DNA from: Chondrilla cf. caribensis
Lineage: Eukaryota > Porifera > Demospongiae > Chondrillida > Chondrillidae
Reading direction: 5' to 3'
Length of the DNA: 64,000 nucleotides
Assembly (NCBI GenBank): GCA_964020155.1
Contig: OZ026556.1
Coordinates: 2,321,501 to 2,385,500 of the forward strand
This document shows positions 42,701-48,700 of the stretch, piece by piece. A program made the position numbers and the translations under genes. Numbering within the stretch: the stretch's first letter is position 1; each line of letters begins with the position of its first letter. A model generated the notes under the pieces. It saw only the letters and a list, made by a program, of their open reading frames with translations. It was not told the origin of the DNA and did not search any database.

Positions 42701-45700
42701 ATTCGTCTACAGATAAAGTTAAGAAACCATTGCCAGAGTCTGAAACTGACTGACTGGCAATGTTGAAATCAACCTACAAGATACTATCGATGCACTCCCA
42801 AGTATTCCTTATTGCAAACAGTAGGCTTCAGTGCAAATAAATCGAATAAAAGCACGTATGTATATATACAACTTGATGTATATACAACCTTCTTTACATC
42901 TTTCCATACATCTTCTTGCACAACCTTGTAGACCAACCTTGTAAACAGCCTTGTAATTTTATGTGCTGAATATTATACATATTATGCTAACTGATCTGAT
43001 ATTATTACCTATTAATCTCATTTAACAGTTCATACACACTCTGTGGAAATTCCATAGAGTTACACTCTTCATATATATTTATTTACAAAAATACATACCT
43101 CCCTAGACCTCATGTAGTCCTGACACCAGGAGAGAATTGTAGTTACAGCATCCACTAATCCAAAAATTCCAGCTAAATCTGGATTCTTCTCCACCTATTA
43201 AAATATAAATATAATGTACATACGTATGAGATGTTACACATACCTTGAAGTCAATTTCAAAGGATTGCTAGACACATGCACAATGTCATACGTACATGGT
43301 TCTCAACAATTCGACTGATGTATGCTTCCTCTGTATTTGCAGTTAGACCACCATAGTCATAAACCAGTGGCTTCATACTAGCTGGTAGGTCAAGGACGCG
43401 ATATACCAAGTGACGTAGTGGTACAGTACCTACAAATACAAGCAAGTAGCCACTAAAGTGAGTGAACAATAAGGTAGTCATAGATTATCTTTAACAAACC
43501 AAGCTTTTGCCTGGTCTCTTCGATCTTGATAAAAAACCCAAGTCCAGCTGATTCCAATCTTTCAATCATATCATCAGAGTGCCTATTAGAGCACAGTAGG
43601 TGGAATTTAAGTGTGAAATCAAAGCACAGAAATGTGGACTACATAAAAGAGAATAGTGTATAGACATTCCAGCTTACTTCCTGTAAGGATTGCAAGCAGC
43701 AATGAACTTAATGTCCTCTGTGATTGGTTGTCCTCTCATTCTCTTGTCACACATAATCTCTTTGATCAGCCCAATAGCATCTGTTGTGTTGGCTTCATCA
43801 AAGAACACAACAGTGCTGAAGCCATGATCCTGGTTCTCTAGAGCATCTTCCTGTACTTTTCCCACAAATTGAACGATGTCATTTTCTGTGATACCACCAT
43901 GTACCTGGAATACACACAACAAATTTAATCATTACACATAGCCAATTTGTACATAAAATGTCTATGATGGGCAACAGTATTATAAAGTATGTACTTACCT
44001 TCATTATAAAGAAAGTCTGACGTGGTGGACCAGCGTCAACTTTGTCTGGATCCACTGTCAGTATAGATTGCAGCTGACACATGTACCTAATAAGTCTAGT
44101 CTTACCACATCCAGTCTCTCCCATAATCACTACTGGGATACCACACCTATGTAACAATATACATAAAATTGTACATTAATAAATTGGAATAGCTATTGAT
44201 ACTGTAAACACATTATGCATTGGTGTATACAGCTTCCGTATATTATGCTGTATAAACATTACAATTATACACAATAGCAAACCTGAATCTCATTTGAATG
44301 GCCAACATTTTCACCATGTTGTCAAATGTTAGAGCATAGGATGGGTCAGGATCAATTTGCTGGAAGTAGAAATCATTCTGATCTGGATCAAAGTTAAACT
44401 TACTCTCTAACACACGACACAGCTTCTTCAGAATTATCAACCTACATATGGTATAACATTATATAGTATAATTTATTACCGTAGTGTCCGAAATTTTCGC
44501 GGGACGTAATTTTCGCGAATCGCTCGATTTAGGACTGTTCGCGTTTTTATTTTCGCGAATGGCAACGTGCTTATTGGTTTTCGTTTAGCACTTCGAGGGC
44601 GCTTATGTGTTATGAATGGCAACGGAACACAAGGTACTATCGTTTATAGTCGAGGCAAGCTTCTGACGTTCTATTTTTCTGAGAAAGAACTGCAAGATTG
44701 CTCGCTTTTGAAGATGTCCACGTTTGAGTATGAGAGCTGTATTCGAGGATATCATGTTTATCAGACTATTTGGAGCAGTAGCATTGGAGAGGTTCTTAGC
44801 TGCCGTCAAGAGCCCAGGAACGCTGAAGATCCCTTCGCTATAGGCATATACAAAGGAGTAACCCTTGTTGGCCATGTCCCAAGAAAGATTTCGTGTGTAT
44901 TTTCGCTTTTCTTGAGACGTGGAGGGGTAATAACAGCGCGAGTAACTGGTTCAAGGCAGTATTCAAGAGATCTTCCTCAAGGAGGTCTGGAGTTGCCCTG
45001 CGTATATTTGCTGGAAGGAGAAGCTAATTCTGTTGAGAAGGCACATAGCAGACTTTTGACCCTAGGCAGTGCTGAAAAAAATTCTCTGACATCTTCACCT
45101 GTTGAAGATGAACCAGCTTCGGTGGTCAACCCTTTAGTAGCAACTCTAGATGAAACTGAATCCAAGGAGAGGCAGATCCCAGCATCATCAGAGTGGACAA
45201 AGATTCATGATATTGTCCTCATGATGGACGACAGACAACTAATTTTGAGTGGGCAAAGACTGACAGACAAGCATATCAATTTTGCACAAAGGTTGATACA
45301 AGATCAATTCAAACATCTTAATGGCCTACGTTTAACATTGATTCAAGACAAACCATACACTGGGAGCAAAAAGCACTTTCTGCAAGTTTTATTCGTTAAG
45401 GAAGGCCATTGGGTGGTACTTGCATCACAAGATGGTAAACTTTTTAAGGTGTACGATTCATTGTACCAGTCCTTGGATGAAAAAACAAAGACACTAATTA
45501 GCCAACAGACTGGTCCTCATCATGAAGCTGTAATCAGCACGACCCAGAGGCAAAATGGCACACAGGATTGTGGACTATTTGCCATAGCTTTTGCTATGTC
45601 GATTGCTTGTGGAGAGGACCCATCGAAACGCACATACAATCAAGACCTTATGAGGGAGCATCTGGTTGACTGCTTCAGTAAGAAAGTTGTTCAGTCGTTC

Positions 45701-48700
45701 CCTTAAAGTGTACTACTTAGTCTAGATACGTATGTAACAGATCATTTGACAAAATTATATTAAATTTTACTGTATATTATGTATAATACAATTATAATAT
45801 TATAATTATAACTATAATACATAAAACACAAGTTTGTAACATTTAATTCAATTTAAAGTAAATGATGTTGCGTAGTTATTTCAGAGCATCCTCAATTCCA
45901 GCTGCTTTGAACCCATTTCGAATGATTTCTGGGTTATCCTGCACATGAGTGAAAGCAGCTACAAACCATTGGGCTCCCAGTGGCTTCATACGGCTTAGTT
46001 TGAGATCAACGAGTGTCTGAGGTTGATCGGTGTCCATCTGCCGTTTGATCTCACCAGCATACCAGAGCTGAAATGCAAATTTCAGTTTATCCTTTATTGA
46101 CTTGTTAACACTCAAGTCCATGGGTTGTAGTCGATCAGTACATCTGGCTGGCACTGTTACAACAATGATGTTGTGCTGCTCTAAACATTTAAAAACTGCT
46201 TCTGTGATTTGGCCTTTGAAGTGATCAAATATCACTAGAGCTGGCTGAGTTTTTGGTAAATTTTGCTTTTTGCGAATGTCAACCACATAAGGAAGCAACA
46301 CCTTCTCGATATATGATAGCACTGTGTTCTCATTTGCCCAGTGACTCTCATTGTATGTTATGCTCCAATTTTCAGGAAAAACAAACTTGGGCAAGCAGGC
46401 TGGTGTTTTTCCCTTGTAGATTAGTTGAGCAGGGAGAAAGGCTCCAGACATTGTACCAGTGAGCAGAGCAGTGATCTGCCTTTTGTCATCAACACCTTGA
46501 ATCTCAATACGTGTGGAACCTTTTGCTTCCATTGTCCAGTTCGAGACGGGTACATATTTGATGGCAGTTTGGTCCCAGTTAATGATCAATTCTGGTGGTA
46601 TGTCCTCAAATTCTACAATTGTGCGAATATCTTCTAGATACTGCTGCTTCAGCTGATCAAACTTCTCGGGTGTGACCTTTGACGTGGTGGACGCTTTCCG
46701 TTTGACCAACCCCATTCTGCCAAGTAAACGTTTTGCCCAGTCCCGTGTTAGGTTGATGGGGCCACCATTCTCAGCTAACAGGTTTGCATCACTTGCTACA
46801 ACTATTCCTCTGGCGACAGCTGTAGTGATTGGGGCATTGATAACTCCACCAGAGGACCTTACATGATGCATGAACGCCTTAACTTGCTCTTCCAGCTCCT
46901 CACCCAATAACAATGACCTACCTCTTCTTTTACTGGGAAGCACATCCACTGATGTCCTGCCGTCCAGTGATCCCGCAGTACGAGACAATTCCTTTTTGTA
47001 AGCATTCATCCATCCACGGACTGTACTTTCTTTCAGGTCGGTAAACTCTCCCGTTCGTTTGAAGTGCCTTAAACAGGCAGAGACGCCCGATTCGGCAGCA
47101 TACTTTGCAACTTTAACCTTGCTGTCTTCTGATATTCCACCTTGGTAAGGCCCTCGCTTCTTCCCAATTTGTTTTTTGGATTTCTCCACGAATTCGTTCA
47201 ATTCCTTTTGTGCAGCTCGAACAGCGGCTCGGGGGATCTTCGGGCAACTTACTTCAGCTTCGGAATGGAGAGGCTTGAAAAAATCCTTGATATTCTTCGA
47301 CATCTTTGCGAGCTTCGACCACGGGTTGTTGTCAATCAAGAACAATAAACAATAGGCATTCGCCCTTTGTTCCCACGTTCCCCGTACTACCAACGTATAA
47401 ACAGCCGCCATTTTATACATAGAGTCTACCCACGATAATTTTCGCGAATAAATTTTCGCGAATCCGACGTTCCTCGCGAAATTCGCGAAAATTACGTCCC
47501 GCGAAAATTTCGGACACTACGGTATAACAAAGTCCACATACATTTACAAATCAATGCATGTGTCGGTATGTATTAGAAATTTTCAAATTTGCACTACTTC
47601 ACACAAAAACATCCATCCCTCTATTTAAAAAAACAAAATAACCTAGTACCAACATACTTTGTCCAACTCTGTGGATCCTGCCTCATTTCGACTCCACTCT
47701 CACGCAACCATCGGTACAGACCATCAGTCATGATATCCTTTTCAATTACTCTGTGGCTTAAATCAACAAGATTGACTGTCCTTCCCACCTGTTGTAGGTT
47801 GAATCCAACAAATGTCATAGAGTCATAATGCTCTTCAGCTTCATACATTCGATAGGTGTCACGATTGAAGAAGATGTAAGGATGAACACTGAGTATAAGT
47901 GGATACAATAAATATAGTACATCTGAGAAAGCAACCTCCTAAGTGTGTTTACAGAGACACATACATTAGGTGTCAAACAAAAGCTTACACATCATTATTA
48001 TAAAGAGAAAACGGAACAATCAAACCAACCTGTTTTGTCTTTTTGACAGAACAATTACTACTGATCAATATTATATTGTATGATGTATGGTAGGAGGCAA
48101 ACCTTTGCTGTGGTTCCATTTTGTCAAGACGAATACAAAATACCATTCCAGCCCATTTTGTTTTAGTATTTTTTCGTAGATTCTATACCATTTAAACCAT
48201 GCTAATAGCAAAAGAATTTCCCTCACCGTCATTGAATATTGAAGTGTGACATCGAAGTGCCATGGCTTAACTGATGTAACACGAATTTGTGCACTTACGG
48301 AATAGACTAATAGCCAGAAATCAATATCGAATGGGTCCTTCAGAAGACCATTCTAATATCACAGATAAGAAAGGAAAGGGAATTCAAATAGTAAAGATAA
48401 TTGCCGAAAGTGTCTGACCGTGTTCGCTCAGTTTTCGCTGATAAAATTAGCCGTTTATCTGCACCATTTGGACCATAGACCACTAATTGCAGCAGAAATT
48501 AGGCTAAATTGGTTTTTAATAGCTGGAAGGGCAGTAGAGGCAAGGACAAGTTGCCCAATTCGTTTTTGGACGTTTTTGTTCATAACTGCTATTGTTTTTG
48601 GATGTTTTTGTTCATAACTGCTATTGTGTAAACAAATACAAAACGGTACTCTGCTGGAACAAAACGGGAAAACACTTTTGCCTGATACCGTACACTGCCC

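What the first reader, a model, noticed from the sequence alone, without database searches (positions are those of the whole stretch)
44479..47522. Young pogo-like transposon carrying a HIRAN-Ulp1 fusion protein
Seen: TA-flanked element, 42-base identical inverted repeats, intact DDE transposase, and an intact convergent ORF with HIRAN motifs (RGYHVYQTIW, VGHVPRKIS) and the Ulp1 H/D/Q/C set (H281, D297, Q329, C335). Known: HIRAN in HLTF/Rad5 binds 3' single-stranded DNA ends at stalled forks; C48 enzymes cleave SUMO. Inferred: the accessory protein may be targeted to transposition intermediates or forks and remove SUMO there, either helping mobility or evading host SUMO-based silencing. I know of no described pogo-type element with this combination.
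Basis: partly seen in the sequence, partly recalled or inferred. Interest (0 to 1): 0.87.

Follow-up and report, generated by a model that had tools for sequence, protein, structure and literature searches.

The report
Jumping gene carrying a SUMO-cutting partner
This jumping gene, from a genome that is likely a sponge's, carries beside its own cut-and-paste enzyme a second gene for a protein predicted to hold DNA and strip SUMO tags from other proteins, and because the two genes recur together and diverge together across distinct families of the element, the second protein likely helps it move at sites of DNA replication.

The parts
44477..44478 (.). TA flank, left (target-site duplication)
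   Evidence: the same TA flanks at the 8 distinct short copies whose two ends were both read
44479..44520 (+). left terminal inverted repeat, 42 nt identical to the right one
44612..45706 (+). ORF1, 364-aa HIRAN-SENP/Ulp1 protein
44708..45073 (+). HIRAN domain (residues 33-154)
45176..45697 (+). SENP/Ulp1-type cysteine protease domain (residues 189-362)
45407..45409 (+). catalytic His266 (62 of 62 aligned homologs)
45455..45457 (+). catalytic Asp282 (60 of 62)
45551..45553 (+). oxyanion Gln314 (60 of 62)
45569..45571 (+). catalytic Cys320 (61 of 62)
45876..47420 (-). ORF2, pogo-like DD35D transposase, 514 aa from the first ATG (475 aa from an inner ATG at 47303, the likelier start)
47277..47291 (-). 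core of the PIP-box-like motif, IKDFF (residues 5-9 of the 475-aa form)
46572..46574 (-). catalytic Asp244 (475-aa numbering)
   Evidence: invariant in the 41 aligned sequences
46224..46226 (-). catalytic Asp360
   Evidence: nearly invariant in the 41 aligned sequences
46116..46118 (-). catalytic Asp396, 35 residues after Asp360
   Evidence: invariant in the 41 aligned sequences; spacing
47481..47522 (-). right terminal inverted repeat, 42 nt
47523..47524 (.). TA flank, right (target-site duplication)

Best explanation
The element is a pogo-like cut-and-paste transposon whose second gene, a HIRAN-SENP protein that recurs beside the transposase in divergent families of the element, likely serves as a transposition helper that would remove SUMO from proteins at replication forks where the transposase is predicted to be tethered to the clamp PCNA. 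Shown: the transposon anatomy; the recurrence, convergent order and co-divergence of the two genes; profile and predicted-fold matches for both domains; an intact catalytic set; more silent than replacement change in both genes; a widely kept [ILM]xx[FY][FY] motif near the start of the transposases. Inferred: PCNA binding by that motif; DNA or PCNA contact by HIRAN, by analogy with HLTF (3' ends of single-stranded DNA) and Rad5 (PCNA and single-stranded DNA); SUMO as the tag removed; a fork protein (PCNA, the transposase itself, or a silencing or repair factor) as the target; the net effect, namely more transposition.
For: Recurrence: of the 10 distinct transposase places at E <= 1e-40 (window included), 7 have ORF1 or its remains adjacent; of the 14 places examined (13 plus the window) 9 do, 9 of 9 convergent. 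One search lists 73 matches in all; the shorter and weaker rest was not examined. Own TIRs with TA on both sides were found for 6 of 8 pairs tested (window, 5 of 7 others; the C3:2399068 one rests on an 11-nt match, E 0.12). Co-divergence: protein distances of ORF1 and ORF2 over 12 pairs, r 0.78, permutation P 1e-4; 0.64 without the second full copy; 0.71, P 0.005, over 8 pairs with no close relatives among them. Constraint: against a degraded relative (C11) ORF1 shows pS 0.84, pN 0.21 and ORF2 pS 0.71, pN 0.24. Linkage elsewhere: three contig lengths over 10 kb are shared by the two homolog lists, against 0.0075 on average for offset lists. Folds. Catalytic residues in 60 to 62 of 62. PIP-like core in the first 30 aa of 92 of 120 listed transposases, shuffles mean 3.1, at most 10; in the first 60 aa of 93 of 105 full-length ones. 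Precedent: Drosophila pogo transposase binds PCNA, with a PIP box conserved in Tigger and Lemi1 (PMC5371812, passages); Rad5 HIRAN binds PCNA and ssDNA (PMC7804152, passages).
Confidence: 0.45

Rival explanations
1. Anti-silencing: the HIRAN-SENP protein removes SUMO from host chromatin silencers at the element, keeping it expressed; replication forks do not matter.
For: SENP fold and catalytic set; SUMO-dependent silencing of transposons in animals is recalled, not looked up.
Against: It does not explain the PIP-like motif in the partner transposase or the choice of a HIRAN domain, whose members described in the papers seen act at forks.
Confidence: 0.25
2. The protease acts on ubiquitin, NEDD8 or another ubiquitin-like tag rather than SUMO, for example on ubiquitinated PCNA or to stabilise the transposase.
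Against: By sequence profile SENP1 is best (E 1.5e-5) and SENP8 far weaker (E 0.11).
Confidence: 0.2
3. Passenger: an old capture that rides along without helping transposition.
For: Capture of ULP sequences by plant MULEs is described as frequent (PMC2528002, passages); MITEs without a working ORF1 have spread, which fits help in trans or no help.
Against: Recurrence, co-divergence and constraint over pairs with roughly 35-65% ORF1 protein distance; 61 of 62 homologs keep the catalytic Cys.
Confidence: 0.08
4. Chance neighbours: two unrelated mobile or host genes that happen to lie side by side.
For: HIRAN-only and protease-only frames also exist elsewhere in the genome.
Against: Both ORFs lie inside one pair of TIRs with TA flanks in two near-identical copies and four more diverged elements, one of them by a weak repeat.
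Confidence: 0.02

Closest known systems
pogo superfamily (DD35D groups of PMC7325037)
   Same: DDD triad with 35 residues between D2 and D3, TA flanks, TIRs, mariner-type catalytic fold; HTH_Tnp_Tc5 over the Pfam cut-off in 2 of 9 relatives
   Different: Carries a second, convergent HIRAN-SENP gene; the word protease does not occur in the main text of PMC7325037
Crypton elements with a C48 peptidase (PMC3212892)
   Same: CryptonF of oomycetes and some CryptonS encode a C48 (Ulp1-type) peptidase, in some CryptonS as an additional protein (passages)
   Different: Tyrosine-recombinase elements of oomycetes and diatoms; no HIRAN mentioned in the passages seen
Ginger1 transposons (PMC2836005)
   Same: A transposon of animals with an Ulp1 domain
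   Different: There the Ulp1 domain is the C-terminus of an integrase-like transposase; here it is a separate HIRAN fusion beside a pogo-like transposase
ULP-bearing MULEs, including KI-MULEs (PMC2528002)
   Same: ULP gene in either orientation beside a transposase (passages)
   Different: Mutator superfamily, plants, described as repeated separate captures; here one lineage with co-divergence and a HIRAN domain
NeSL and Utopia retrotransposons (PMC4640811)
   Same: Ulp1-like protease domain in a mobile element (passages)
   Different: Non-LTR retrotransposons with the domain at the N-terminus of their protein
HLTF and Rad5
   Different: Those are SNF2-RING ubiquitin ligases; here HIRAN is joined to a predicted tag-removing protease
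Drosophila pogo transposase as PCNA partner (PMC5371812)
   Same: Transposase with a PIP-type motif (passages)
   Different: Here the motif sits near the N-terminus and lacks Gln; binding untested

Membership tests
pogo superfamily | DDD triad, DDxD spacing | tested here: met
   Spacing 35 in 68 of the 68 transposases that the pattern parsed, of 120 listed; triad kept in the 41 aligned
pogo superfamily | TA target-site duplication and TIRs | tested here: met
pogo superfamily | HTH / CENP-B-like DNA-binding domain | tested here: inconclusive
   No Pfam HTH over cut-off in the window protein; HTH_Tnp_Tc5 over cut-off in 2 of 9 relatives, just under it in 2 more
pogo superfamily | mariner/Tc1-type catalytic fold | tested here: met
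pogo superfamily | placement in the pogo clade of a transposase tree | not tested
   no reference set of named pogo transposases was at hand
HIRAN domain (PF08797) | profile and fold match | tested here: met
HIRAN domain (PF08797) | HLTF-type DNA-end pocket residues | tested here: inconclusive
   Asn91, Asp94, His110 equivalents kept; Arg71, Tyr72, Asn90, Tyr93 not; weak alignment, HLTF numbers assigned by me from the 56-175 fragment
Peptidase C48 (SENP/Ulp1) | profile, fold and His-Asp-Gln-Cys set | tested here: met
   (47 of 62)
Peptidase C48 (SENP/Ulp1) | SUMO isopeptidase activity | not testable with these tools
   needs a protease assay
PCNA partner with a canonical PIP box | Qxx[ILM]xxF[FY] | tested here: not met
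   hydrophobic and aromatic core present, Gln absent; window SKNIKDFFKP
Ginger1 | Ulp1 fused to an integrase-like transposase | tested here: not met
   separate ORFs, mariner-type fold ranks first

The most novel reading that the evidence does not exclude
An old lineage of animal transposons runs a two-protein replication-fork device: the transposase docks on PCNA through an N-terminal motif, while its co-inherited partner recognises fork DNA or the clamp with a HIRAN domain and strips SUMO from PCNA or neighbouring factors, so that jumping is coupled to replication and SUMO-based control is switched off locally. It would be the mirror image of Rad5/HLTF, with HIRAN used to remove a tag instead of adding one.
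Probability: 0.25. Interest if true: 0.87.

Novelty: new variant of a known kind. Interest (0 to 1): 0.7.

Why it matters
Ulp1-type and related proteases are described in Ginger, Mutator, Crypton and some non-LTR elements, and a role in transposition has been proposed but, in the text read, not shown (PMC2836005, section 9). Here the protease is joined to a domain with a known address (HIRAN), is co-inherited with one transposase lineage, and sits in a compact 3-kb element with two intact, similar copies. That makes the open question directly testable: does a transposon-borne protease help transposition, and does it do so at the replication fork?

Tried and rejected
One-off capture: rejected. 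Bacterial or viral origin of ORF1: the scans of viral contigs (11 pattern stretches) and genome contigs (10) confirmed no relative. SUMO-interacting motifs as a family feature: not enriched; one divergent transposase frame (C25:1621077-1623723) has a VIDLT stretch shortly before an LTDYF stretch, a single case. dN/dS between the two full copies as proof of selection: dropped after the MITE control gave 0.56-0.57. Whether one outlier or the close pairs make the co-divergence: checked, they do not (r 0.91 without C25:1621077; 0.71 without close pairs). HIRAN part alone against PDB sequences: nothing; its profile gave HLTF at E 0.31. Rad5 is not among the rows shown, which shows nothing. Rfam: no hit in the window. 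No Pfam hit in six other window frames. The first comparison script misread the orientation of the loci; its numbers were discarded and redone.

Literature: ten counted searches. bear on novelty. For the three papers (pogo, transposon, Ulp1) passages were read, and none describes a pogo-type element with Ulp1 (in one of them 'pogo' matched an ant name). The one paper has no 'hiran' in its held main text. Of, passages of PMC2528002 and PMC3212892 were read. The papers were seen as listings only; one search listed none. The library lacks most subscription papers and Repbase reports, so this is weak evidence of absence.
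Full report
What is there. Window 44479-47522 is a 3,044-bp element flanked by TA, with 42-nt identical inverted repeats that start CCGTAGTGTCCG. It holds two convergent ORFs: ORF1 (+, 44612-45706, 364 aa) and ORF2 (-, 45876-47420, 514 aa). The element appears to lie in an intron of a host gene on the minus strand. Frames within 43677-44175, joined, match RNF213 of the Protein Data Bank at E 6.5e-23 (chain residues 2050-2163). A frame on the other side, 47624-47938, matches the same chain weakly (E 0.056) at 1945-1989, which is the right order. 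A frame next to the element (44246-44458) gave only chance-level matches.

Copies. The host genome (137 Mb, 37 contigs) holds a second full copy at C3:3411408-3414438: 2,968 matches, 63 mismatches, 13 gap columns, both ORFs open. The TIR pattern hits 64 places (control 0); 20 pairs of hits form elements, 2 full and 18 short (399-689 bp), and 24 hits stay single. Of 13 short-copy loci given to (11 distinct places), both ends could be read at 8 distinct places, and all 8 have TA on each side. Eight of the 11 distinct places share one internal joint (nt 376-378 / 2868), so they look like copies of one deletion derivative (MITE). All 19 MITE fragments of ORF1 examined (codons 1-82) have a stop or a gap, 12 of them a stop.

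The gene pair is old. The genome was searched with each protein (112 and 73 matches). I laid the two sets together at 14 transposase places, the window included; the shorter and weaker transposase matches were not examined, among them seven loci held (L078, L082, L085, L086, L088-L090). Nine of the 14 have ORF1 or its remains adjacent, nine of nine convergent. Among the ten places with transposase E <= 1e-40 it is seven; the three without an ORF1 match in the roughly 1.5 kb held downstream (C11:2665671, C3:2736937, C5:5365235) are partial and hold stops. Own inverted repeats with TA on both sides were found for five of the seven other pairs tested: C3 copy 2, C25:1812364-1816599, C11:2640324-2643368, C3:2399068-2401328 (weak, 11 nt, E 0.12) and C25:1621077-1623723; none for the pairs at C17:2843098 and C3:2258834; the partial pair at C24:2390923 was not tested. 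Distances of the two proteins correlate over 12 pairs (r 0.78, P 1e-4; 0.64 without copy 2; 0.61 also without the window; 0.78 for the seven genome pairs without copy 2). Leaving out the outlier C25:1621077 gives 0.91, and eight pairs with no close relatives give 0.71, P 0.005. Four of the 12 pairs are database proteins paired by identical longest-contig length: the three lengths over 10 kb are safe (0.0075 on average for offset lists), the 3,789-bp one is not safe on its own (0.8 among short contigs). One search shows one more shared long length, 20,335 (P0262 with P0182), and two short ones, 3,277 and 2,926, noticed by eye without a control.

Constraint. Window against the degraded C11 relative: ORF1 246 codons, pS 0.84, pN 0.21; ORF2 442 codons, pS 0.71, pN 0.24. 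So ORF1 was held about as tightly as the transposase. Between the two full copies dN/dS is 0.39 and 0.37, but dead MITE fragments of ORF1 give 0.56-0.57, so this pair is weak evidence.

How it likely works. The transposase would dock at PCNA and cut and paste the element; the HIRAN-SENP protein would be drawn to the same place by DNA or PCNA and remove SUMO or a related tag, from PCNA, the transposase, or repair and silencing factors. The first half of this chain rests on a motif and a precedent, the second on folds and intact residues; no step of it is shown by experiment. The anti-silencing reading is the main rival and shares the same enzyme.

Spread and host. Among the listed ORF1 homologs only two carry an organism name: Amphimedon queenslandica (P0035) and Halichondria panicea (P0301), both demosponges by my own knowledge. 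No relative was confirmed in the prokaryote or viral contig sets.

What is known. Ulp1-type domains occur in Ginger1 and Mutator elements (PMC2836005, passages and section 9; PMC2528002, passages), in some Cryptons, there also as an additional protein (PMC3212892, passages), and in NeSL and Utopia retrotransposons (PMC4640811, passages). A role in transposition was proposed in PMC2836005, not shown in the text read. Searches for HIRAN with transposon or transposase, pogo with Ulp1, SUMO protease with DNA transposons, C48 with sponge transposons, Zisupton/Kyakuja with Ulp1, and a combined query showed no element like this (mostly seen as listings); the library lacks most subscription papers.

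Noticed in passing
window 43677-44175 and 47624-47938 (-): Coding frames of a host gene related to the ubiquitin ligase RNF213 (E 6.5e-23 on the lower side; weak E 0.056 but in the right order on the upper side); the element sits between them, apparently in an intron.
   Followed up: partly
G000 C8:2120552/2123513, C5:2897341/2900212, C19:3640709/3643644, C6:2746683/2744055, C8:2069423/2067095: A second repeated arrangement: a more distant transposase match (open frames of about 572-574 aa) with a same-strand Ulp1-type match about 2.0-2.3 kb downstream and no HIRAN match listed there, at five places. Possibly another Ulp1-bearing transposon family; the DNA could not be fetched.
   Followed up: no
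G000 C6:5608630, C4:1544172, C21:3916130 and C11:5221426, C13:3132393: Repeated HIRAN-only matches in frames of 213 aa and protease-only matches in frames of 396 aa, perhaps split or reshuffled relatives of ORF1.
   Followed up: no
G000 C25:1621077-1623723 (L087): Divergent pair whose transposase-side frame reads VIDLT (SUMO-interacting type, recalled) followed by PKKLTDYFQKK (PIP type); not a family-wide feature.
   Followed up: partly
window 44507, 44547, 47436, 47450: Four copies of a TAATTTTCGCGAAT-type 14-mer inside the ends, candidates for transposase binding sites.
   Followed up: no
MITE loci among L005-L054: Eight of 11 distinct short copies examined share one internal joint (nt 376-378 / 2868), so a single deletion derivative seems to have been amplified.
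   Followed up: yes
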